64,000 nucleotides of DNA from contig JANBPK010000807.1 of assembly GCA_027579435.1 (NCBI GenBank), positions 366,800 to 430,799 of the forward strand, in the 5' to 3' direction. The position numbers and the translations under genes were made by a program. The stretch comes from Candolleomyces eurysporus. Taxonomy: Eukaryota; Basidiomycota; Agaricomycetes; Agaricales; Psathyrellaceae. The notes beneath the pieces are model-generated. The model did not search any database. It had not been told where the DNA came from and saw nothing but the letters and a program-made list of their open reading frames with translations. Positions 4,476-40,213 of the stretch are shown here, piece after piece (the stretch's first letter is position 1; each line of letters starts with the position of its first letter).

Positions 4476-5571
4476 CTACCCCGAGGCATCCTCCATATCA
4501 ATCGCCCCCGGAATCCTATTCTCCCGTCTCCCGCCTCCTCCTGCCGCACCTTCAGGCCTCGCACCTCCTCTCGTTCCTCTCGTAATAGAAGTAGAGACAA
4601 TAGTACCAGTGTTAGTCCGTCGTGGTAGCTCCCCGCCACCCATAACCTCCGCCGTGCTCCTCCTCGCCAACGCCGCCTGGGACCGCATCAACATCCGGAG
4701 GCTCGCAGGTATCCGTACAGACGTCGTATTCGGGAGAGGTAGACCACCACCGCCTGAGGACGAGGAGTCTGAATCGGAGCGTGTCATAATAGGTGGAGGT
4801 GGGTGTCGGAGACGGGTGATGAGAGGGTGGAATCGTATGTCGATGATATTATCGTCTGAGGGTCCATTTAGTGTTGTCGTTCCGTTTTTACTGGTTGAAT
4901 ATGTAGTGCTTGCTGCGTTGCTGAAGAATCTTCGTCTTCTTGACGAGCTGGGCGTTGGTAGAGGTGAGGTGATGGGGGTTGGTAGGCCTGAGGGGAGTGG
5001 TGTAGAGGGTTCTTCGACAGGGAGCAATATGTCCTCCGCCTGCGAAGAGCTGGTCGCCACCGCTGTTTCGTATGATATTGTGAGAACGGTCCACTGCATG
5101 AATAGAATGGCGAAATCCAGTGTAATGAGTTGTAGCCTCGACGCCGTGTGCGCTACACAACCCTCGGTTAGCAAGACTCCCACTAACATGAGCAATGGAC
5201 TGTGGTGACATACCCATCCCAACGAAGTCAAGGATGATTGCCCTTCCCTCCATCGCACCATAGACGATGTGCGTGTAGAAATTGGGTATGTTGAGGACGA
5301 AGACGACGATCCAATGAAACCGCAGCGAACAGGAAAGGTCAATGTCTTTCGGCTTCGAGCATTGAAACTGGGATATGATCCTGAACACGAATCCCAATAT
5401 CGATGGCGAGAGGAAGAATGATAGTGTATGGAGCTGGTATAGCAGGCTGTCGACCTAGTAGATAAATCATGGCAGCTAGACTGAGTATGGGGCAATATCG
5501 CCGATGAAGCTGCACACGATGCTCACCGCACTGACAAGATGCTTCCGTTGAGCATACTGGCGCTTGTGCAT
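4476..5571 (-). CDS. DUF1746 multi-pass membrane protein, probable Dsc E3-ligase subunit
   Basis: Three exons (5527-5571, 5214-5454, 4476-5152) join in frame to a 320-residue protein. The N-terminal 130 residues hold the conserved part: LLYQLHTLSFFLSPSIL, then a membrane stretch WIVVFVLNIPNFYTHI, EGRAIILDFVGM and LQLITLDFAILFMQWTVLTISYE. This arrangement (L-Y-Q-H, LDF-G, LLDF) is what I know as fungal DUF1746. From memory, the fission-yeast member is a subunit of the Golgi Dsc E3 ligase involved in SREBP activation; treat that link as inference. The C-terminal half is low complexity, rich in Ser, Gly, Pro and Arg (poly-S at about residue 240, GGGG), and probably disordered. The final G-S-rich exon is uninterrupted to TAG at 4478-4476. 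Confidence 0.72.
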
Positions 5572-7920: not shown

Positions 7921-9268
7921 TGGTTCATTACATTGGACGATGAGGTCGAGTTGATTTGGTCGTGAGTGGTGATAATGACCGTTATCTTTCGCTCAAATCA
8001 ATGACGGTGCAACCGCTAGAAGACCCCGATCAGCTTGGGTGAAGTGGCTGTACCTTTTCGCAAGATACTATCCTCTCGGGGCGTCACTGTACGTTCTTCC
8101 TTTGCTTAGGGTCAATGCTAGCAGCTAACGCAAGATTTCAGCGCAGCTCGGTCCGTCGAGGCAGCCGTGATCTTCCGGTATCCTTTGAAACTTAGTTGTT
8201 TGAAAGTATGGTACTCTTGTCAAGTCGTTGTAGCGCTGCACGCAATGGTTGCGCTTGAGATTGTTCTCATGACCCGAGGTAAGGAAATGCCCTGCTGAGT
8301 TCATGGTTCTCGCTGAAACCCTGCTTTAGTTTACGCTCTTTACAACCGACCACGATGGATGCGACTTTTCTTTACGGCCCTTGTCGTTATAGAGAACGTT
8401 ATCGTCATGGTTGGCTTGTTTGTCCACTACCCATGGCCAGGCAGGTATTTTCTTGCGATATATGTGGCTACGAAGCTTCCCCCATCATTTTCCTACTTTG
8501 GGTAGGTTTCAATCCCACATAGCATGGATGCACCTAGCTGAATTTCGTCTATGCAGATTTTGCACTATCGTCATTCAAGTTGTCATTCTCTACTTTACAC
8601 TCTTGAAGTACCTGACAGGGAACTGGAAAACCGTTCCCATAGTCAAACTCATGTTTCGGGATGGCACACTTTCCTTCACTATTCTCACAAGTACGCCACC
8701 CCAACATACACTTTTGACAGCTTGTGTAACCTCCACTTTAGTCTTCAGTTTGTCGATGTCGGTGTTGACCGTCAAAGATAATCCGTATGCTGTTCCTGGA
8801 TACTCGTGAGTACCTCTTGCCAACTCGCACCTACACTTGTTCACATTATGAATCATTGCCTTTAGTTGGCTTCTAGCATCCATTTCATCCGTTGTAAGTC
8901 TTTGACACGTGTCCTGCTTGCCGTTGCTCACTGGAATTCCATAGACATGTCGTCTCATCATCAACTTGCAGCAATTAGGGCCTCGGGAAAACCCCGATGG
9001 TTCGACTGGTATCCAATTTACGACATTCCTTGCCGAAGACTACCCATCGACATCGACGAGGGTCCTGTCTCCAGAGAGCTCGTGCTCTTACCATCCGACG
9101 TCCACCTCTCATAACTCACAACCATCGACATCGAAGAGGGTCCTGTCCCCAGAGAGCTTGAGCTCTTACCATCCGACGTCCACCTCTCATATATCACAGC
9201 TCACTTTCGACCCCGCGAATGCGAACACGCCGGAAAAACGTCGTTCGTCCAGCAACCCAATGCCTTGA
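7921..9268 (+). CDS. DUF6533 multi-pass membrane protein (5' end unresolved)
   Basis: The exon at 7921-7961 reads WFITLDDEVELIW, the signature that opens the DUF6533 domain of Agaricomycete membrane proteins. It is followed by exons at 8020-8088 (VKWLYLFARYYPLGAS), 8142-8278, 8330-8501 (VYALYNRPRW), 8557-8690, 8742-8805, 8866-8893 and 8945-9268. They join in frame to about 330 residues with several hydrophobic helices and the conserved late motif CRLIINL. The tail contains a perfect-phase duplication of 26 residues (see the 78-bp repeat). The family is abundant and of unknown function in mushrooms. The first exon is not assigned: the frame upstream of 7921 has stops, so either an intron or decay lies there. 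Confidence 0.7.
9044..9199 (+). repeat. 78-bp tandem duplication inside the DUF6533 gene
   Basis: Two direct units of 78 bp (9044-9121 and 9122-9199) differ at only a few positions. The length is a multiple of three, so the frame is kept and 26 residues, rich in Ser/Thr/Pro, are doubled in the cytosolic tail. Confidence 0.9.
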
Positions 9269-9968
9269 ATGCTCGTGTATGATAGTTTTTCACTGCGTGG
9301 AATTGAATCCTAAGCTCCTCTACGTTAATTTGTATTTAAAAGCTGAATTGAACTCACAGCCGGCTCCCTGAGCGAATTTTTAACGCGCTCACACTGCAAG
9401 AGGCGGAGCTTTCACATACCGTGACAGAGGTCTGGCATTGTGGCAGACAGATTGACTTTTGTGCTCCTACGGTGGCTTTGTCTTTGCCAGAGGCACAATG
9501 AAGTCATCGGCCCATGTTTCCTCTGAGTGCTCATCATATTCCATCAAAAACACCAGCTAAACAGAGGATATACACACATTATCATGGCGGCATAATTTAT
9601 GTATCTTGGAAATTAGCTTATCAAACACCTCGCAAAGAAGGAGACAAAGAGAAGAAACAAAAACCCATTTAACAGGGCTGTGCCAGCCGGTCACAGTATG
9701 GAATAAACACTGCAAAGGTCAATTGGTCTGTCACATTGCCGCGCTATGTCACGATTCAAGTTTGCAGAACCACCTTCTTTCTTGCAATGCCAAGTTTAAG
9801 CGTATTTACGTGTTATTTATCTCTGTTATTTACGAAAGCCAAAGTCCCTCGAGGCAGAAATCCTTTTGGATTCAAGCTTGATCTCGTCCACCAGCCGCTC
9901 ACCTCTCCTTCCAGTGACTTCGCTCTTTGCTCTGCTATCTCAACCATCTGCTGGCCAGAACAGTAGCT
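9269..9968. other. HDAC upstream region, mostly occupied by a TIR element
   Basis: 700 bp between two plus-strand genes. Positions 9392-9789 are the TIR-bounded element. The remaining roughly 180 bp before the HDAC start codon are the closest promoter sequence and include pyrimidine-rich stretches. Confidence 0.5.
9392..9789 (-). mobile_element. Non-coding TIR-bounded element, copy A (MITE-like)
   Basis: On the reverse complement this 398-bp stretch aligns along its whole length with 38171-38562; long blocks are identical or nearly so, for example CATACTGTGACCGGCTG and AGTCAATCTGTCTG. Both copies end in inverted repeats of the form CACTGCAAGAAAGG / CCTTTCTTGCAGTG (here more diverged). There is no open reading frame of note, so it would be non-autonomous. 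Clear target-site duplications were not found. It ends about 180 bp before the HDAC start codon. Confidence 0.75.
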
Positions 9969-12900
9969 ATGGAGCGGGAAAATGTAAACGATGATGCTAT
10001 GGACATCGACAACCCCACGCGCACGAGTGCAGCAGCTACAGGCGACCAGACTGACCCCGGAAACCAAGCCCCCGCTCCAGCACTGCCGGACTCGTCCTTG
10101 TCCGATTTACAGTTACCTTTACTAGCGGCACCAGCTCAACAGGCTGTGCTTCCCGCAGCGGGCTCTGTACCTAACGGACTTCCAGGCTACTACTCTGTGG
10201 GCTATGTATTCGCGGTGGACATGCTGATCCATTTCAAGAAGGGTGAAGGACACCCAGAGCAACCACAGAGAATACTGCAGATACTGGATATGCTCACTCT
10301 AAATGGCCTCACCCCAAAAATGAAGCAGTTACCGATTAGGCAGGTTAAGAAGCACGAAGCCATGTTAGTCCATAGCGAAGATCATTGGGACAAGGTTATT
10401 CAAATACAATGTGAGCGTTTGTCTGTCTGTCTGTCTCGAGAGTGTCTTTTTCTTTTTTCGTCCCTTTTTCTCGTCACTATTGTATGAATAAGTGAATTGA
10501 TGATATTACCTTTTCCCCCTCTTCTGTCCGTTAGATATGACCGAACAGCAATTCGTGGACTCGGAGGAGTACTATGAGCAATTATCACTCTACGTCAACG
10601 AGGGAACGACAACCGCCGCTATGTTGAGCTGTGGAGGCGTGATTGAGGCTGCACTAGCGGTCGCGCGAGGTGAAATGCACAAGAGTTTCGCAATCGTACG
10701 ACCTCCTGGGCATCACGCTGAGCCAGACGAGCATATGGGTTTTTGTTTCTTCAACAATGCCGCTGTCGCTGCGCGTGTCGTTCAGCAACAAACGTCTATT
10801 AAGCGTATTCTCATTTTGGATTGGTATGTGGTGTTCCCCTTTTTGCACTGACAATGTCGTAACAAGCTTTTGGTATTCTGTAGGGATGTACACCATGGTT
10901 AGCAGCGCTCTAGCCTCGCTCGGAGAAGCTAATATTGACACTAACGGGCGCCACTCCCGCGGCTTGCAGGGAATGGAACGCAACGTGCCTTCAACGACGA
11001 TCCATCCGTGCTTTACGTTTCCCTCCATCGATACGAAGAGGGAACCTTCTATCCTTGTGGCCCCTTTGGCTCATTAGAATCGTGTGGAGAGGGACCAGGA
11101 CTCGGATAGTGAGCTGTTTATGCGACCCATTTTCTGTTCAGCCTATGTATTGACCTCACCCCTTTCGCCCTGAAGCTCTGTCAACATCCCATGGCCCTGT
11201 CCAGAGATGGGCGATGCAGATTATATCCACGCGTTTCAACGAATTATAATGCCCATCGCAATGGAGTTTGCACCAGAACTAGTTATCAGTACGCCATTCA
11301 GTCCCTTATCGTCCAATAGCGTGAGTTCACCCTAGATGATGTCAATTTATAGTTTCGGCCGGTTTCGATGCTGCTGAAGGCGATGAGCTAGGCGAATGTT
11401 TGGTGACGCCTGCTGGCTACGCACACATGACGCATATGCTCTCTGGATTGGCAGGGGGGAAAGTGGTGGTCGCTCTTGAGGTGAGCATAAACCCCTCCCT
11501 CCTGCATCATCGTACTTATTGTATTGCTTTTCTTTTCAAGGGAGGCTACAATCTCGACTCGATATCCAAATCGGCGCTTGCGGTGACTCGTGTTCTTCTC
11601 GGCCAGGCTCCAGATGAATTGCCGCCCTTGACCGCGTCGGAAGAAGCGACTGAGACTGTTTGGCTTGTGGCAAAGGAGCAGAGCAAATATTGGAAGAGTG
11701 TCGATCCTAAGGCTTGCGAGCCTCAGGAAAGTAAGAGACCCCTTGCCTTGCGCGTATTCTTTTGCTCATGCCTTCTGCTAGCCTTCGAAGACATTTCTTT
11801 CTCAATCACAGAAATTCTCAAAGGACATCGGCAATACTATTTGTATACAAAACACAACATGATGGAGATACCTTTAATGAACGAGAATTTAGCAAATCGG
11901 TTCTCTGGTCAAGTTATGTGCACGTAAGTGGCGTACTACCCTTATAGTCAATGGTGAATTTTGAACGTTGGGACAGGTCAGATCTCCTTGACAACGAAAC
12001 TATGATTTTGTTCGTACACGAGTTGCAAGTATCGCTCTACCAGGCACTTGGTACAACTAGCTGACGTTCCCCCAGTGGAAACCTTCGAGTGGAATTAGAG
12101 TCCTCCTCTACTTGCGACGTGCACATGCATAAATCATACTTGGTATGCTGTCCATTTTCTGCGTAGTCTAGATTCCGTGTCTCACCCGATTTATTCATCA
12201 GATTGATTTTTCCAAGCAGTTAGTGGGGTGGGCCCGGAAAGAAGGTTATTCATTACTCGACGTAAATATATTGCCCAAGCCTGTGGAAAAGCACAATGTT
12301 ACGGTAAGCTCCGTGCCGTTCTCGTGTCCGTTTCAATATGTTAATATCGACGCTGTAGCGGGGTAGACAGCATATGGACGAAAGTTCAAAGGATGTTTTA
12401 ATCTACCTGTGGGACAATTTCATCCAGTAAGCATTCCACGTCTCTCCCAGCTCCCNTTTTTTGCTGACGTTTTTGCGCGCAAGGATATCGAATGCTTCTC
12501 GTGTCATTGTTTTGGGACATGGGCCTGGATGCCGTGCAGTGGTCGATTTACTCAACAGACGAGGTGTTACACTTTATCGCTGAAGCTCTTTCTATTCCAC
12601 TGACAACATCGACAGCTGTTGGCATGATGAAGGTTGTGAAAGGGTTTATTCAGGTTGTCGGCCTTCAAGATCAACCACATGCACCATCAGGCGGTTTAGA
12701 CGATCTTCGGCCCTGGTTTAAGAAAGTGAGCGATCCCATCTGGTAGAGAGGAGACTGCTTCGTTTCTGACCTACGGGGACATCGTCCAGCATTCAGTCGT
12801 AGTTACACCTAGTGCACACCCAATGCTTCCGCGACTGGACAAAGCAAATGAACTCCGGAAGCATGGATCTATTCTCCCAATAGGCACGCCGTCTTGATTT

Positions 12901-13257: not shown

Positions 13258-16200
13258 TTATAGTATAAGTTTAACGCCTCCTTCTCTCGGTGAGATGACG
13301 CCCACGACTTTACCAGTAAAGTCGTACAACGACGTTCGCTTGACGGCGACGAGGTCTGTGTTGGGAGTCTTGAGACCGAGAAGCTTCTCAACATTTGCTG
13401 TCGCGAGGGCGATGGCTTGAGTCTTGGAGATTCTTCCGTGTGCTTCGATCGCGGTCTGGTATTCGGGTATCATTGAACGTCATTAGTATACCGAAGTCTG
13501 AGAGGAGGAATGTGAAAATAAACGCACCCAGCCAACGTCGAATCGCAGATTCCTAGATTGCCATTGTTCCACAATTCCCAGTGCAACGGTCACGTTGTGG
13601 CTCAGGAGGACAGCAGCCGCGTTGTTCTCAGAGAGTGGTGGGCCTGGCAAACTGAACGAGGCATTAGGTACTTCACTATAGATAGACAGGGGGTGATAGC
13701 ATACATTCTTCGAGACCTCCAAGATCCAGGGAACGGTCGAGAAGGTGTCAGTATAACACCAATCCCGGCTTCCCCAATTTCCTTGGCGAGGAGGTGAGCT
13801 TCGTTCGCTCCGACGAGGGTAACCTTGAGTGGTGTGCTACTGTGACTTTCGACTTCCGCCTTGAGCTGGATGAGTGAAGCGATGACATCGGCACTTTGGA
13901 CTTGAATGACTAGAGGAAGCTCGCCCTAGGTCACAGCAAATGCATTGAACGTTTGCCCAGTGGTTGGAGAAGCTAGCTCTTACCTCGACGACTTGTCGGA
14001 AGACACGCTTGAGTTCGCCTTCGCCCTGATCGAAGAGCAAGTTTCGGAGGGCCGCGATTTGCGTACTGATGCTTGGGTCGGAGGAATCGATAGAGATGTG
14101 GAAACCGGTGATATCTTGAAGAACAGCACCCCTGGCAAGCTTATGAGGTGCTCCGGTGCTGAATGCAGTGCTAAGACCAGAGATGAAACCGTTGCTGTCA
14201 GGTGCTGTGATTCCAACTGTTGCTCCAGATCGGTAAGAAAGTCTGAAAAACGAAATTTCAGGTGTTAGTGCTTGTTGAGCGAAGCGTAGGGATGCAGATA
14301 CTGACAGAGCATCGCGAGTAGCAAACTCCAGTCCATCCACTGCGTGAATGATGGTGCCTTCTCCGAGGATAGACGGATTCTCTGCCTTGAGCAAATTGAT
14401 GACCCTGCCATCGTTGGTTGNTTTTTTCCTGGTCAATCTCGTGGATACCGAGTAGGCTACCAAAGCTGACGAGAGCAGGCCTGTATATCAGAGCGTAAGT
14501 CCAAATGACCATCAAATGTCAGGTATCAAGGCCACGTACGAGATAGACCCTCCTTCCAAATCAATCCTTTGAACAGAAGGCAAGGACAAGGCCGAAAGGC
14601 AGTCGGTACCTTCAGCAGAAGTGCACTGAATCTCGCCATGCTTGACAACGACGGACTGGGAAGAGGCCTCGCTGGTCCCAACGTCGAACACTTCCTTAAT
14701 TCCAGATCCAACCCTGATATACAAACTTGAGACGTTGTGGAAGATGACCACATCTCCAGTTGCTGGGACGGGCTCCAAAGGCGGAAGGCCGTCGTACTCG
14801 ATAGCGGACCTGAGCTCCCTGTCGTAATCAGGCGTCTCAGGAGCCTTCTGGAAGTACTCTGGCTTGTTGCTGTAGAAGGGCTTGACAAGTTGAGGGATAC
14901 CGTCGATGAAGACCTGTTTGGGTGTGGCGCCAATTTGGAGGGGATGGCTGTCCCAGATGACGACATCTATCCATACCCGTTTCGTGACTCCTTCAAGAAC
15001 GAGGATGTAAGAAGTACTCACCTGCATCGTAGCCAGGTTTCAGGAACCCAATTCGGTGATCATAACCCAGAATCGTAGCAGGAGTGGTGGTAACGGATGC
15101 GAGAGCCAAATTCTCTTCAAGACCGTAGTGGTGAGCTTGTTGAGCCTCATTCAACAGGAAACGTGAGTTGAGGACCGGGTGATCGCTCTAGGCGCTTCGG
15201 TCAGCACAAGCTGCGTATGCTCAGAGGAAGGGGAAAATGTACCTTCATGCCAACCTTCAGGCCATTATCGCTCAAGATACGAGGAGCGAATTCTGACCCT
15301 CGGTATGCCTCCCGCTTGTACCGGGCGTTTGTCGCAAATAGTGCGATGGCAGGTGTGGTGCCTGTTTGACTCGTCAGATATAGAAAACGTAAGGAATCTG
15401 TTTAATATCAGTACCGTAGGCTTTCTTGACGAGGTCAGGAACAAGGTATGTCTCGTGGGCATGGTGGAAAGCCGCGATACTGAATTTGAACTCGTTCGTG
15501 AGCTAATAAAGTCACTGGGTAAGCACCACATTATGGGAGATTTGGGCAATAGACACTTACTCTAACCATGTTGTCCAAATCGACAGCTTCATAGCAATGA
15601 TTGTGGACTTTCACGCGACCTCGCAGAACGTCGACGAGAGCTTCCCACTGCAAATCCTCGGGGAAGGTCCCCAGGTTGTTCCATTTGCCAGAAAGAGCAT
15701 TTGCGCAGTATTGATCCTGCTTCTCTTTGATTTGACGAGCTGTATTGTACCTAGAGTCTTGTGAACAGACGTGCGAATGAGAAAGATTAAGATATTTACG
15801 CTTTTCTGAAGGCCCACTGCGTGTCCATTCGCGTCCCAGAGAACACACGCACTGAAATCAACTTAGCCTTGGGAGTCTGATCTCTTAACTTTGGAATACA
15901 TACTGGGGTTTTCACCTTATGCAGTCCGGTTAACATTCAGCATCGTTTATAAGAATTTGCGACTTACCACAAGCGTGCCTGGAGAGGGAATTATTAGGTC
16001 CACATCGTTCTCGTAGAATGTAGAGTAGCTTACTTCATTTGCCTCCACCGAGGCCGATCCGAGAGGTGATAATCAGTTCCGTTGAGCGAGAAGGGAGGCT
16101 CGAGCAAAAGAGAGGATGTGCTGCGTTCTTTGGTTGATCGTAGTTTGATGGTGAAGGCCTGACCACCTATCGCATCCGCTGAACCAGGTAGGACATTCGA

Positions 16201-16882
16201 TGTGGTAACTCCTCCAGAGACTGACAGACGGTATGCTTCATCGTGTGTATTGAGCCCATCCAAGCTTCTGAGCCATGGCTGAGCAATGCCCTGGAAGGAA
16301 TTGGTATCGTCGCTTCCACGTAGTTCTGGTGCGCTGTCCACGCCAAGGTGCGAATGCATATCTACAATGCTGAGGAAACAGGAGTTTGAGTCCAAGATAA
16401 GTAAATAATAGAGTTCATACCCACCCGGGAGTTACCCAAGCGCCCCGTGCGTCAATCACGGTAACATCGCTGTATTTCTTGAGGAGAGCGTCGTCCACGT
16501 CTCCAACAGCTTTGATCAGTCCATCAGCCAGGAAGACGCTTCCTTTAACGACCTCCAGTCCGTCAGCGCGACCAGTCCATATGGTAGCGTTCTTCACGAG
16601 CACTGGCTTCGTCCCGGATTCGAATCGGTCGGACGTGGTTCGTTCGTGGAAGTCAGAAGGCGGTCCCGGAAGCAAATGAAGGGCTCGGCATTTGTTGACG
16701 ATTTGCGCTGCATTTATTGGCAAAACCTGGGCTGTTGACCTGCCTCCAAAGTCAATAGTGACCGCTGTTAGATACGCGAGGGGTCCGATAGCCAGCAATA
16801 TTGCGGCCAGCAGCCCCTTGAAAGCCCTGGGTCGCGCCTTTTGACGGTGCTGCGTGGCATAGTGGGACGGCAGCTTGTCCAT
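13258..16882 (-). CDS. Membrane-anchored amidohydrolase-superfamily protein
   Basis: The start chosen is the ATG at 16882-16880, giving a short basic N-terminus, then one helix (GLLAAILLAIGPLAYLTAV), so a type II anchor. The hydrolase opens with VLVKNATIWTGR and continues TPG-IVDMHSHLG, the metal-binding HxH of the amidohydrolase superfamily. Later metal or active-site candidates are HNHCYE, AAFHHAHETYLVP and MKSDHPVLNSRF, and the composite domain closes with GFLKPGYDADVVIWDSHP. A second, imidazolonepropionase-like beta domain covers the C-terminal 350 residues and ends near 13258. Some 15 introns are visible, including two successive micro-exons of 11 and 12 nt. The frame shifts at the N at 14421 in a run of A. 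Substrate is unknown. It is head-to-head with ERCC1 (112 bp). Confidence 0.82.
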
Positions 16883-29129: not shown

Positions 29130-31732
29130 TCAAGCCGCAGGGGTTGACAATTGTCTTGCTTCTTCCTCCAACCTCGTTAAATCGGTGAGATCGTCTTCGT
29201 GCCCTGTTGCATCAAAATGCATCTGGAGTAGAATGATCAAGCGACCCAACCATCCGACTCTATTCGCGTGTCCAACAGGATAGTGGGAATCAAGCAGCTT
29301 CCGGCACGCTTCTATTGCTCCAAGAAGGTGAGGGAGTGCACGACTCTCTTCGTACATAGCTCGGAGGGATATGACCAAGTTGCTGAGCGGCGCCGGGCTT
29401 GAGCGATGATGCAATGGCTGGAATCCAAGCGCATTGTGAAAGAGGGAAATGGCCTCTTCAAGGTCAGCGAGGGTCCTTGTGCTCCTATAGCGATCCAGGA
29501 GTGCGTTGCCAAGATTGTTGAGTGAGTCTGAGCATTCTGGATGCGTTAATAATCGAAGAGTCAGCGCTTGACGATGCAGGGAAATGGCTTCCTCAAGGTC
29601 AGCCATGGTTCCTGTGCATCGATAGCGATTCAAAAGGGCATTGCCGAGATTATTGAGTGACAATGGGGTGTCTGGATGATGTGGTGGTCGAAGAGCGAGT
29701 GCTTCACGATGCAAGAAAATGGCCTCCTCAAGGTCGGTCACGATTCCTTTGCGCTGATAATGTTCCAGGAGGGCATTACCGAAATTGAAGAGGGATGCTA
29801 AGCGACCTGGATGAGGGAATGGTCGAAGCATGAGCGCTTGACGATACAGGACAATGGCTTCCTCAAGGTCAGCCATGGTTCCTATGCGCCAATAACGATC
29901 CAGGAGTCCGTTGGCAAGGTATGCGAGTGACGACGGGCGATCTGGATTGTGCAGTTGTCGAAGTTCGAGCGCCTCGCGATACAGGCCAATGGCTTCATCT
30001 AGGTCCGCGAGAGACCCGGTGTGTCTAGCGCGATTATAGACTATATTGGCCAACGCGTGGATTGAATATGGGGTGCCTGGGCTAAGTTCAGCAGCCTCAC
30101 GACACAACTGGATGGCAAAGTTTGACTCCGATAGCTTGAAAAAGCCCTGCCCTGAGATCAAATGGCTCAGTGAATACCTAAGAGCATAGGCAACAGCGGG
30201 TCGAAATTCACTGGGGTGCTTCAATGAGCCCCACTGATTTTGGAGACGAACTCCGACTTGACACTGGAGACAGCGAAGGAAGAGGCGGACATGATGGGAC
30301 TGTTGTGCGCAGAGTTGACCCGATCGACTTGGAGTCGTCAGGAAGTCTCGAAGGGAGGTGTGGCAGAGTGTGACAGGCAAATCGTCCGTCCCGGGAACCT
30401 GAATGATTGCTTGCATGTGAACAAGGACGTTGACGACCTCGTACGTCTTGATTCCAAGGAGCTCCGCGATCCCTGCTGTTGGAAGTGGTGTCTCGAGAAG
30501 AGCAATGGTCGAGATAATGTCGGGGAAATGGGGGAGATGTTCGGAACGCGCTAACGTTTGCGCATAGAGCCCGTCCAGACCCGGGTTCATTTCGAGGGCC
30601 AAGGGAAGGCGATCCATGGGCGTCGTTGGGTGATTGCTGTCGGTGTTCAAACCCATGATAAATTTGAATACTGCCCACGCAAAAATGAACGAGCCGCTGA
30701 TATGCGCGACCAGTTTCAGTCTGTCGCTCTGGGCAGGCCATTCTCCATGCTGTTGAACATATGCTTGGACGACCGAGTCCCGACCGCATCCATCCTTGAA
30801 CAGAGTCTGCAGGAATGTATCGATGTCGTCATCGGTACAATGATCTACAAGGTTATCCAGCTGTACCCCAGGGACATTTAGGTGGGATTGGATATGCTGT
30901 TCCACTCGGCTCGTGATGAAAACGCGAAGGGGTATAAAGGGATTTTCTTTAAAGAACAAGAGCATATCGTCGATAAGCTCTTGAACTTCATCTTTATTGT
31001 CGCATTCGTCCAACCCATCTAGTACGATCAGAAGTGGGCCCCGCACCAACGCCCCGACCTTTGTTCCTCCTTGGACGACCGTGACAGCTTTGAATGGACC
31101 GTATATCAAACGTCGCATTCGAGCCCCTACGGAAATGTCTGCCTCGTCTGGACTCAGCAAGGTCGGGTTGGCTTTCACAGTTGCACGTATGAAGGGCTCC
31201 GTCTCGGGGATCACGGCCGCCATTTGACAAGCCAGAGTTGTGGCGAGCCTCCAAATCTTGCTTCTATGGCCCGCATTCCGGAAGAAGAAGAAACTCACGA
31301 CAGGTCTTTCCTGTCGGTCGGAGGTATCGCACACTTCCTGGGATATGGCGGACTTGCCGCTTCCGACGTATCCGTGCATCCATCGAATGTTTGGTTCACC
31401 AGGAACTATTACTTTGTTGCTTGCCCAGGTGTAAACCTTCCCGACTACTCCTAGCCTCGTCCCTTGCATACAGGCAGAGTTTGGAGGCGATCTCTTCCGA
31501 TCTCGGGTATGGGACGCGTCCAGAATGGGTTTAAGGAGTTCTGGCAAACCTGTGATGTGATTAGCCTAGCTCAGTTGGTAGAAACGCTTGAGAACCGAGA
31601 TGCCTACTTTTGGTATCCTCGGCGGTGGCCTGGGTAGCGTGAAGGTGAAAAGCTCCATGGACTTGGTATGCGGTTAGCTGCTCGACACGGGCATTCTGCG
31701 ACTCTCTGAGGATGTCCATCATAGATCTAAAG
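29130..31732 (-). CDS. NACHT-TPR NLR (STAND ATPase) without an evident N-terminal effector domain
   Basis: Two exons (31609-31732 and 29130-31549) join in frame to 847 residues. After some 80 residues lies the NACHT domain: IRWMHGYVGSGKSAISQEVC (Walker A), RGPLLIVLDGLDECDNKDE (Walker B), PLRVFITSRVEQHI (sensor 1) and a winged-helix-like part around TIALLETPLPTAGIAELLGI. The C-terminal 330 residues are tetratricopeptide repeats with a 45-residue period, each with ADLEEAI-L---AL--R and SLNNLGNALL--Y. Fungal NLRs of this plan act in self/non-self recognition and cell death; the ligand is unknown. Most carry an N-terminal effector (HeLo, lipase, nucleosidase); here that part is only about 75 residues and not recognised, so either it is minimal or an upstream exon was missed. 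Upstream of the ATG the frame meets a stop, which supports this start. Confidence 0.88.
29300..30080 (-). repeat. TPR-encoding repeats, 135-bp period
   Basis: At least five consecutive units within the NLR gene, each 45 codons long. The middle units are very alike at DNA level, as if recently copied or homogenised. Confidence 0.8.
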
Positions 31733-36046: not shown

Positions 36047-37133
36047 TTTATCGCGCTTTGTGACCCTTTCTTTTTATCATTTTAATTGCTGTCATCATAC
36101 TCCCTTTTGTTCGCATGCCAGCTCATTCTCATACTCCCAATTTCAGGGCTCGAGTTTCGTTGTGCATCTTCAATCGACCCACTTCGCCATTGTATGCAAC
36201 TCTTTGAGGTGAGGTCATGTAGAATATCAGAATAGATAGACAAATCGGTGGTAGGATGTAGTACGTAGCCCTAATTCTAACAAATCGAAGGCCAAAAACG
36301 CTTGAATAGTAGGAACAGAAATGTCACAAGTCGCTGAACAAAATTAACGGGTGGAAGTGGACCACCCTCGCCACCAGGAGCCTGCAGTTGGCTCGTGTCG
36401 ATAGAAGTAGTATATGAAGGAGAGGGTAGAAACACAGCGTCTTGCAAACCTTCAACGTGAAGAANGGGGGGCGGTGGCAGTGGGTCCTTCGGGCGCTAAA
36501 GCATGGGTTGTGGTGCTGTGCACTGAGAAGACATTGGCATTGGCAGGCCAGGATACTGCAGGTTGATATTGGGGACCTTCAAAGGGAGGATTCACACCTT
36601 TGCAACAAGAGGCATTAGCGGCACTTCCTTGCTCAATCGATTATTCGCGACATACGAGAATCGGGAGGCCCTGACCTGCTGGAGTCCAGAGCCGATTGGG
36701 GCTGTACACCTTGAAAACTACATGAACCGTGCCTCTGATTGAATGAATGGTCGTTATTTGAGTTCACATGATTTGTGTGGACTTGAGATTTGTGGTAGTT
36801 GACGATGTACTGGACGCTCGGCGGTGGAGGGCCGACAAGAACACGAAGTGAAAGATTGTTGAGGTCGGATTGGATTTGGTCGATCCGCGCAGACAGAGCA
36901 TGAAGTATCTCCTGACAGGGTTGAGAACAAGTATACGGTGACGACGGTGGCACATACGTGGACGTCTGTTGAAGTCTGAGCCACATGAATTACGGGATCA
37001 GCGCCTTGACTCGTGAGAGCTAGAGACGTCTGCATTTCGGGGTCGAAACGTGTGGCCTAACTCTGGGAAGGGAGTTGTTATTCAGCCAGGGCATTTGTTA
37101 ACCACAAGCGATATTTATATGTGGAGCGAAGGA
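36047..37133 (-). repeat. Duplicated segment, copy 1
   Basis: About 1.09 kb that aligns in the same orientation with 39073-40213. Similarity includes coding exons, both introns, about 230 bp downstream of the stop and about 100 bp upstream of the start (ending near GATATTTATATGTGGAGCG in copy 1). Confidence 0.85.
36277..37035 (-). CDS. Unrecognised small protein, duplicated family copy 1 (frame interrupted at an N)
   Basis: Three exons (36958-37035, 36656-36911, 36277-36597) mirror those of the gene at 39304-40089 in length and splice phase. The protein starts MQTSLALTSQGADPV, has a probable short coiled coil (LHALSARIDQIQSDLNNLSL), then VQYIVNYHKSQVHTNHVN, a Pro/Ser/Thr-rich middle with HALAPEGPTA and LHVEGLQDAVFLPS, and a hydrophobic C-terminal end (NFVQRLVTFLFLLFKRF). 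The last segment could be a tail anchor or amphipathic helix. In exon 3 the N at 36465 replaces three bases seen in the other copy, which restores the frame. I know no family for it, and function is not proposed. Confidence 0.6.
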
Positions 37134-37789: not shown

Positions 37790-39072
37790 GTTGTGGGGTA
37801 GTCGTGGGGCTGAGTGGGGTGAAAGTTGAAATAGCTGGCTACAAAAGAAAGATAAGAAAACGGTCTACCATACTGTTCGAGATTCCCACGATTGGATCCT
37901 TGATGCAGAAAAAAAAATGTCGGAAAAACCCGAAAATTCAATGGCCGGCCCCTTAAGTCTGTTGTTTAGGAGATTTATGGCACTCAAACCAAAAATAGCT
38001 ACTCACAATTCATATGAATACTCAAAAAAGGGTCAGACGAGGGCCAGGGGCTTGTCTACGAAGGATTTTACGATTTGTTCATCATATCGAATCATATTGA
38101 AACGCATTACAAGTGCAATTCAAGCGCCGTTCCAATAATTCGAAGGTTGATCAAAATGGCCTTTCACAATCACTGCAAGAAAGGAAGTGGTTCCGCGAAT
38201 CGTGGCATAGTGCGGCAATGTGACAGACATACTGACTTTCACAGTGCTTATTCCATACTGTGACCGGCTGGGACAGCCCTGTTAAATGGGTCTTTGCTTC
38301 TTTCCTTTGTCTCCTTTTCAAGGTGCTTCATAAGCTATATCCCGAGATACATAAATTATGCCACCGTGATAATCTGTGTATATCCTTTGTTTAGCCAATA
38401 TTTTTGATGAACATATGATGAATACTTCAAGGAAACATGGGCAGATGGCTTCATCATGCCTCTGGCCAAGATAAAGGTGCCGTAGGACCACAAAAGTCAA
38501 TCTGTCTGTTATAATGCCGGACCTCTGTCACAAGCTGCAAAAGCCCCTCCTTTCTTACAGTGTTTTCGGCATGGTTCATTCAAATGAGTTTGAATTGATT
38601 TGATTGCCGAATCGGAATTTGCGACAATTTTTTATCTTTTCTTTTACTTTCTTTGAACCTTTCAGTCACCACACTGCATGGGATGTCCACCGAGAGACAC
38701 GAGGAGCGGCTGCATATCCGATTCGACAATTTCCGTGTACTCCAGGCCCTGTCAGAGGAACACCTCTGGCGCCAGATATCAGAGGTCTCCGACTGCACTG
38801 AGTGGAAAGAGGATGCTGTTACTGAAAACCGTTCGCGTGTACGAGCGGTATGCTCACTTCAATTGGTTGAATGGCTCATAAGGTGACTAATTTATAGTGC
38901 CTGACACTGCTGCAACAACGGAGAGGAAGTGCCTATTTCAAGGAGGAATGCTTGGCCTTTTTCAACCCATCGGCAAAATGCCTCGGTAATCCGCTCGGCG
39001 GAGCCGCCAGGCATAATTCCCTGAAAAATTTGAATCCTTTCAGCTTTCCCGTTATCCCGGCTTCCCGTTGCT
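37790..39072. other. Intergenic stretch around TIR element copy B
   Basis: Apart from the element at 38171-38562 only short frames are seen, including 38653-38886 (+), whose ALSEEHLWRQISEVSDCTEW might be a worn F-box-like fragment. Not supported as a gene. Confidence 0.3.
38171..38562 (+). mobile_element. Non-coding TIR-bounded element, copy B (MITE-like)
   Basis: 392 bp that match the reverse complement of 9392-9789 from end to end. The terminal inverted repeats are CACTGCAAGAAAGGAAG on the left and the complement of CACTGTAAGAAAGGAGG on the right, 15 of 17 identical. No coding capacity. No target-site duplication was recognised in the flanks. It sits between the two copies of the duplicated gene. 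Confidence 0.8.
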
Positions 39073-40213
39073 TATCGCGCTCTGTGACGCTTTCTTTTTA
39101 CGGGTTGGGTTGCTGTCGTTATCCTCCGNTTTTTTTTTTTTTTGCACGCAGAGCCATTCTCATGGCTTCCAATTCAAGGATTCGAGTTTTGTTGTAAATC
39201 CTTCGAGCGACACACCTCGCCATGGTGTTGCAATTCTTCGAGGTGAGGTCATGTAGAATATCAGACAAATCGGGTTAGAATGTAGCCCTAGCTCTAACTA
39301 GCTCTAACGGATGGAAGGCCGAAAACGCTTGAATAACCAAAAAAGAAACGCCACAAGTCGCTGAAAAAAAGTGGTAGGCGGAAGCGGATCACCCTCGCCA
39401 CCACGAGCCTGTTGCTGTACTCCCAATATGTTCGTATCGATAGACGTAGTATATGAAGAAGAGGGTAAAAACACAGAGTCCTGCAAACCTTCAACGTGAA
39501 GAATTTGGGGGACGGTGGCAGTGGGTCCTTCGGGCGCTGTAGCATGGGCTGTGGTGCTGCGCACTGAGGCGATCGGGGGATCATTGGGCCCATTGCCAGA
39601 CCAGGGCACTGGTTTCCGAAATTGGGGACCGTCGGAGGGAGGGTTCATATCTTCGCAACAAGAGACGTTAGGGACACTTCTTCGCTCAATTGACGGCTCA
39701 TAACGTACAAATATCGTGAGGACCTGACTCCCTGGAGTGCAGAGCTGATTGGGGCCATACACCCTGAAAATTACACGAACCGTGCCTCTGATTGAATGAA
39801 TGGTCGTTGTTTGAGTTCACATGATTTGTGTGGACTTGGGATTTGTGGTAATTGACGATGTACTGGACGTTCGGGGGTGGGGCGCCGACGCGAACATGAA
39901 GTGCAAGATGGTTGAGCTCGGATTGGAGCAGGTCTATCCGCGTAGATAGAGCATGAAGTGCCGCCTAACAGGACTTCAGAACAAGTATACCGCGACGATG
40001 GTGGCACATACGTGAACGTCTGTCGAAGTCTGAACAACATGAGTTGCAGGTTCAGCAGCTTGACTCGTAAGAGCTAGAGAAGTTTGCATTTTGGTTAGCA
40101 CCCAGAGTCGAAATGGGTGCTCCTTTACCTAGGAAGAGAGCGGGTAATCAGCCAGGGTGTCTGATACTTGATACTCACAATATCCATAGCAATATTTATA
40201 TGTGGAGCGAAGG
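39073..40213 (-). repeat. Duplicated segment, copy 2
   Basis: Same-orientation partner of 36047-37133. It differs by many substitutions and small indels and has an N with a long T run at 39129, downstream of the gene. Confidence 0.85.
39304..40089 (-). CDS. Unrecognised small protein, duplicated family copy 2 (intact)
   Basis: Exons 40012-40089, 39709-39964 and 39304-39650 total 681 nt and give an uninterrupted 226-residue protein. It begins MQTSLALTSQAAEPATH, followed by a short coiled coil (LHALSTRIDLLQSELNHLAL), the conserved VQYIVNYHKSQVHTNHVN and FNQRHGSCNFQG, a proline-rich part, HATAPEGPTATVPQILHVEG and a hydrophobic C-terminus FFQRLVAFLFWLFKRF. Exon lengths 78 and 256 are identical to those of copy 1, and the divergence is mostly substitution, so both copies look maintained as genes. 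Family and function unknown. Confidence 0.65.

What the first reader, a model, noticed from the sequence alone, without database searches (positions are those of the whole stretch)
9392..9789. New TIR-bounded non-coding element, two inverted copies, one in the HDAC promoter
9392-9789 read in reverse matches 38171-38562 over its whole length. Both ends are inverted repeats around CACTGCAAGAAAGG (15 of 17 identical between the ends of copy B). No ORF. Such a unit is best explained as a MITE-like non-autonomous DNA transposon. Copy A ends about 180 bp before the start codon of a histone deacetylase and could carry or disturb regulatory sites.
Basis: seen in the sequence. Interest (0 to 1): 0.75.

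Follow-up and report, generated by a model that had tools for sequence, protein, structure and literature searches.

The report
Small jumping-DNA family in a mushroom
The two matching stretches are old copies of a small, gene-free jumping-DNA element that most likely spread through this fungal genome using another element's enzyme; it is an ordinary kind of element, and one copy happens to sit just in front of a histone deacetylase gene.

Summary
Window 9392-9789 (copy A, reversed) and 38171-38562 (copy B) align end to end (329 of 388 aligned positions identical), and similarity stops at both termini. At least 27 places in the 65.85 Mb genome match; 10 are copies of this family with both termini. 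Typical ends are CACTGYAAGAAAGGAGG...CAGTG inside roughly 70 bp imperfect terminal inverted repeats. A 99% identical unoccupied relative of one site shows a clean insertion with a 3 bp target duplication, CTA; two unoccupied relatives support a second site. Exact 3 bp duplications flank 5 of 12 complete copies examined. A separate 502 bp foldback element shares 69 terminal bases. CAC..GTG ends plus 3 bp duplications fit EnSpm/CACTA better than hAT, Zisupton, Plavaka or Harbinger. No autonomous partner was found, although the genome holds 50 Transposase_21 matches and not every end could be followed. Any effect on the deacetylase gene is untested; copy A is among the more decayed copies. Ordinary kind; this family was not met in the papers searched.

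The parts
9392..9789 (-). Copy A of the MITE (398 bp), reversed relative to copy B; flanks TCA/CCA (2 of 3 match)
38171..38562 (+). Copy B of the MITE (392 bp); flanks AAT/TTT, no target duplication recognisable
38171..38240 (+). Copy B left terminal inverted repeat (about 70 bp, imperfect; inner limit approximate), begins CACTGCAAGAAAGG
   Evidence: 52 of 74 aligned positions identical with the other end over 75 bp
38493..38562 (-). Copy B right terminal inverted repeat (inner limit approximate), begins CACTGTAAGAAAGGAGG on the minus strand
   Evidence: these terminal bases also match the end of a separate 502 bp foldback family (79%)
9720..9789 (-). Copy A terminal repeat next to the deacetylase gene (degraded: CATTGCAAGAAAGAAGG; inner limit approximate)
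9392..9459 (+). Copy A other terminal repeat (degraded: CACTGCAAGAGGCGGAG; inner limit approximate)
9969..10487 (+). Open frame holding the probable first exon of the histone deacetylase gene (ATG at 9969; exon end not determined)
   Evidence: Pfam PF00850 on the following frame 10537-10851; exon structure inferred

Best explanation
The two stretches are copies of a non-autonomous DNA transposon (MITE, about 395 bp) of the EnSpm/CACTA (CMC) type. It carries no gene. A transposase encoded elsewhere recognised its ends (roughly 70 bp, beginning CACTG) and inserted it at staggered cuts that leave 3 bp target duplications. Multiplication, the termini and the 3 bp duplications are shown; the identity of the transposase and the cut-and-paste chemistry are inferred. 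The copies in the window look like fossils: copy A is 15-18% diverged from the other main copies and has degraded ends, copy B 6-10% from those other than A. Copy A landed in the promoter-proximal region of a histone deacetylase gene and is most likely a neutral passenger.
For: At least 27 distinct matching places. An alignment of 10 copies (one of them, C272, partial) shows shared sequence bounded by the same termini with unrelated flanks, except that the three 342 bp copies share flanks. Clean unoccupied relative of the C661 site: 287 of 291 flank positions identical, one CTA where the filled site has CTA on both sides. Unoccupied relatives of the C568 site (C254, C1230) carry one TGA where the filled site has CGA/TGA. 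Exact 3 bp duplications in 4 of the first 11 complete copies examined (CTA, TTA, TGA, TGG; chance 1.8e-5 for 4 of 11, 7e-6 for 4 of 9 with the three duplicated copies as one, at 1/64 each), plus AGA/AGA at C73. A separate 502 bp foldback family shares its terminal 69 bp at 79-83% and makes TGG and AGA duplications, as expected if one transposase reads these ends. CAC..GTG termini with 3 bp duplications are given as consistent with EnSpm in PMC12730594 (passages). The genome holds 50 matching stretches of Transposase_21 (PF02992), 46 over the family's cut-off; that this Pfam family stands for EnSpm/CACTA is recalled. Copy B folds into a long hairpin (z -6.05 against 100 shuffles), as its inverted ends predict.
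Against: No larger element with these ends was found. Copy B and the three 342 bp copies have no recognisable target duplication; copy A, C568 and C230 match in 2 of 3 bases only. CAC..GTG holds in 8 of 10 complete copies, exact CACTG..CAGTG in 6 of 10. The relative of the C656 site lacks 10 further bases at the junction, so it is not a clean empty site, and for six of nine sites no relative spanning the junction was listed (40 of 93 candidates scored). Termini are CACTG, not the classical CACTA (recalled).
Confidence: 0.87

Rival explanations
1. A MITE of the PIF/Harbinger (Tourist-like) type, mobilised by a Harbinger transposase, which also makes 3 bp target duplications.
For: 3 bp duplications; TTA, one of the five exact ones, fits the TWA that such elements prefer and CTA comes close (preference recalled). 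19 DDE_Tnp_4 matching stretches exist in the genome, and one lies 4.3 kb from a terminus of the foldback family on C555.
Against: The other exact duplications are TGA, TGG and AGA, so no TWA rule. Ends are CACTG..CAGTG, whereas Harbinger ends usually begin with G (recalled). The C555 terminus opens away from the DDE_Tnp_4 match.
Confidence: 0.07
2. A MITE of another CMC-related lineage (Plavaka, Mirage, Chapaev, ESTA or an unnamed one), not EnSpm in the narrow sense.
For: Plavaka transposases are common in this genome (111 matching stretches); lineages of this group mostly share CA..TG termini and make 2 to 5 bp duplications (PMC12730594, passages).
Against: By the same passages PlavakaA ends in TGT..ACA, PlavakaB in CATCA..TGATG, and ESTA makes TA duplications. 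Mirage and Chapaev ends were not compared.
Confidence: 0.05
3. A segmental duplication of host non-coding DNA, without transposition.
For: Some copies share flanks (C62, C464 and C65; C846 and C1006; C1228 and C79), so larger duplications did copy some of them.
Against: Flanks of the other complete copies are unrelated; a precise unoccupied relative and target duplications exist.
Confidence: 0.01

Closest known systems
EnSpm/CACTA (CMC) DNA transposons of fungi and their non-autonomous derivatives
   Same: CAC..GTG termini and 3 bp target duplications (PMC12730594, passages); Transposase_21 matches in the genome
   Different: No coding capacity; CACTG rather than CACTA; inverted similarity about 70 bp long; no partner identified
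MITEs reported in Laccaria bicolor (PMC3411680, passages)
   Same: Short non-autonomous elements in a mushroom genome, low copy (4 families, 249 copies there), mostly in gene-rich regions
   Different: The passages seen give no sequences, termini or superfamily, so identity with this family cannot be judged
Non-autonomous hAT elements of Marasmius oreades (MarorhAT-4, -11, -12; PMC9674265, passages)
   Same: Several non-autonomous families with closely matching terminal repeats, thought by the authors to use one transposase
   Different: hAT type (8 bp duplications, recalled), with new insertions observed and an autonomous partner known; here 3 bp duplications, no partner, no activity data
Plavaka transposons
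   Same: CMC-related, many matches in this genome
   Different: Different termini according to PMC12730594 (passages)

Membership tests
MITE (non-autonomous TIR transposon) | Short, without a transposase gene | tested here: met
   392 and 398 bp in the window; no internal ORF of 60 aa or more in copy A; copy B listed only for 170 aa or more
MITE (non-autonomous TIR transposon) | Terminal inverted repeats | tested here: met
   15 of 17 terminal bases in copy B; 60 of 73 aligned positions over 75 bp in the C661 copy
MITE (non-autonomous TIR transposon) | Multiple dispersed copies with conserved termini | tested here: met
   27 matching places, 10 of them copies of this family with both termini
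MITE (non-autonomous TIR transposon) | Target site duplication and unoccupied site | tested here: met
   C661 site against C1110 (CTA); C568 site against C254 and C1230 (TGA); C656 not clean; six further sites without a relative
MITE (non-autonomous TIR transposon) | Partner transposon with matching ends (usual, not required) | tested here: inconclusive
   None found with the patterns and four Pfam families used, but not every single end was followed and the assembly has 1296 contigs
EnSpm/CACTA superfamily | CAC..GTG termini | tested here: met
   8 of 10 complete copies; criterion from PMC12730594 passages
EnSpm/CACTA superfamily | 3 bp target site duplication | tested here: met
   5 of 12 complete copies exact, 3 more match in 2 of 3 bases, 4 without; unoccupied sites confirm
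EnSpm/CACTA superfamily | Mobilised by a CMC-type transposase | not testable with these tools
   Transposase_21 matches exist but none could be linked to these ends
PIF/Harbinger (Tourist) | TWA-like 3 bp target preference | tested here: not met
   CTA, TTA, TGA, TGG, AGA; the preference itself is recalled, and five sites are few
hAT / Zisupton | 8 bp target site duplication | tested here: not met
   3 bp at the sites with unoccupied relatives; 8 bp for Zisupton from PMC12730594, for hAT recalled

The most novel reading that the evidence does not exclude
Copy A has been kept as a working part of the histone deacetylase promoter (or a hairpin transcript of it directs silencing there), so that a transposon fossil tunes a chromatin enzyme that may in turn control transposons.
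Probability: 0.04. Interest if true: 0.55.

Novelty: new member of a known kind. Interest (0 to 1): 0.2.

Why it matters
It gives one MITE family in a fungal genome with defined ends, target duplications, sub-types and an unoccupied site, and shows two non-autonomous families with shared ends but different interiors, a good handle for finding the responsible transposase. If copy A affected the deacetylase gene it would be a case of a transposon touching a chromatin regulator, but nothing here shows that.

Tried and rejected
Segmental duplication: rejected for the family (unoccupied sites, unrelated flanks), though some copies were spread that way. Autonomous partner: terminal patterns, four transposase families, and single ends followed inward: C223 5.9 kb, C480 4.5 kb, C1064 2.8 kb, C555 0.6 kb, C1276 and C1266 1.5 kb. 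No transposase was recognised; of these pieces only three frames were given to Pfam (from C1266, C1276 and C223: no family), the rest was judged by eye, and C1064 looks copia-like by eye. The C1266 and C804 ends lie inside a duplicated stretch of at least 3 kb (91%). Rfam over 9000-10200: no match. Bacterial promoter scan: not meaningful for a fungus. A scan of viral contigs with a deacetylase frame was irrelevant to the question. RIP-like mutation: transitions exceed transversions and some C-to-T changes are at CpG, compatible with decay of methylated cytosine, but too few sites to claim more. Literature: the two terminal 14-mers are in 0 papers of the held library; topic searches listed no paper that by title or start of abstract describes this family; passages of three papers were read.

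Full report
What was claimed and what is there. This is exact. The copies align with 329 of 388 positions identical; the local score of 432 compares with a maximum of 27 over 200 shuffles of copy B, and the 200 bp flanks show no similarity beyond shuffles.

Copy number. A search of the window's own genome (65.85 Mb, 1296 contigs) with copy B gave 30 matches, and with the C661 copy 51 matches at E up to 0.01. Counting matches that overlap, or are parts of one copy, once, one search covers 27 distinct places; by the tool's own statement this is a lower bound. Seven copies of the main type have both termini (C661, C656, C568, C230, C1145, and copies A and B on C1092; the C1145 copy is split by about 243 bp). 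Three copies of a 342 bp sub-type (C62, C464, C65) have both termini but share flanks, so they are probably one insertion spread by a larger duplication. C272 is nearly complete with degraded ends and was left out of the counts of complete copies. C394 belongs to another family (below). The rest are truncated or single ends. C661 and C656 are 98% identical to each other; copy B is 90-94% identical to C661, C656, C568 and C1145, copy A 82-85% to these and B; C230 is 75-78% identical to all six.

Termini and insertion sites. A typical copy, such as C661 or C656, begins CACTGCAAGAAAGGAGGTGG and ends CCCCTCCTTTCTTACAGTG; 6 of 10 complete copies have exact CACTG..CAGTG and 8 of 10 have CAC..GTG. 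Inverted similarity extends about 70 bp inward (60 of 73 aligned positions in the C661 copy). Flanking triplets are CTA/CTA (C661), TTA/TTA (C656), TGA/TGA (C1145), CGA/TGA (C568), TTA/CTA (C230), TCA/CCA (copy A), AAT/TTT (copy B), AGA/AAC (C62), GTT/TCT (C65) and GGA/AAC (C464). Nine predicted unoccupied sites were searched as one string; 40 of 93 candidates were scored. For C661 the relative at C1110:63015-63272 has 287 of 291 flank positions identical and reads straight through with one CTA; a more distant one at C1110:56542 (246 of 281) agrees. For C568, relatives at C254 and C1230 read through with one TGA, so the CGA of the filled site is a later change or a variant. For C656 the relative at C1232 lacks 10 further bases at the junction and is not a clean case. 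For the other six sites, copies A and B among them, no relative spanning the junction was listed.

A second family with the same ends. The match at C394 is a different element: 502 bp, nearly palindromic except in its middle, flanked by TGG/TGG. It has a 93% identical relative at C73 flanked by AGA/AGA and partial relatives at C1064:36745 and C555:19948. With the window's family it shares its terminal 69 bp at 79-83% identity. With both families, exact 3 bp duplications flank 5 of 12 complete copies examined, 3 more match in 2 of 3 bases, and 4 do not (copy B and the three 342 bp copies).

Classification. CAC..GTG termini with 3 bp duplications are described as consistent with EnSpm (CACTA) in PMC12730594 (passages). 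The same passages give TGT..ACA or CATCA..TGATG for Plavaka, TA duplications for ESTA, 8 bp for Zisupton, and 3 bp for canonical Harbinger. Against Harbinger, the triplets (CTA, TTA, TGA, TGG, AGA) follow no TWA rule and the ends do not look like Harbinger ends (both recalled). I file the family as a MITE, and as EnSpm/CACTA-type by termini and duplications; the transposase test is open.

The missing partner. Matching stretches (not genes; several can belong to one gene): Transposase_21 50, of which 46 over the cut-off; Plavaka 111; KDZ 121; DDE_Tnp_4 19. Terminal patterns gave 35 sites with up to 2 mismatches (control 5) and 21 exact sites for the shorter form (control 1). Compared by eye, no transposase match lies between two such ends on one contig within 15 kb. 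Near neighbours are: on C15 a KDZ match at 15352-16006 about 0.5 kb from a two-mismatch pattern site at 16537, which opens away from it and has no further similarity to the element, so it is probably chance; on C555 a DDE_Tnp_4 match 4.3 kb outside a terminus of the foldback family that opens away from it; on C230 a Transposase_21 match 5.6 kb from a complete MITE copy; on C661 a KDZ match 10.4 kb from a complete copy. The partner may be lost, too diverged, unassembled, or behind one of the ends not read (C238, C1003, C1050, C1104, C1236).

The deacetylase gene. The probable ATG is at 9969, 179 bases beyond copy A, and the frame at 10537-10851 matches Hist_deacetyl. Copy A is among the more decayed copies of the main type (only C230 is more diverged). 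Nothing here shows an effect on expression; a passenger is the most economical reading.

Organism. Many KDZ and Plavaka matches fit a mushroom-forming basidiomycete (association from PMC12730594 passages). No name was available and none was sought, and no relatives of this genome could be searched here (one search says none are held).

Verdict. In the light of the papers searched it is an undescribed family of a familiar kind; interest is modest.

Noticed in passing
36271-37040 and 39298-40094: Direct repeats about 3.03-3.05 kb apart, pieces 79-92% identical; MITE copy B lies between them, so it sits in a locally duplicated region.
   Followed up: no
9044-9198: Tandem repeat of 78 bp, 2 copies, 92% matching, just upstream of copy A.
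   Followed up: no
29130-31547 (-): 805 aa frame that by eye resembles a NACHT-type NTPase followed by TPR-like repeats, overlapping a 135 bp tandem repeat at 29443-30005; no domain search done.
   Followed up: no
G000:C394:5421-5922 and C73:2460-2962: A separate 502 bp foldback element with 3 bp duplications TGG and AGA, sharing its terminal 69 bp with the MITE.
   Followed up: partly
G000:C1145, about 117952-118194: The stretch that splits the C1145 MITE copy carries inverted CCGAGGCATTTTG motifs and may be, or contain, another small transposon.
   Followed up: no
L068 (IMG/VR contig), 5001-5099: A contig of the viral collection encodes a 33-residue stretch 58% identical to the deacetylase frame; may be host DNA or a viral homologue.
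   Followed up: no
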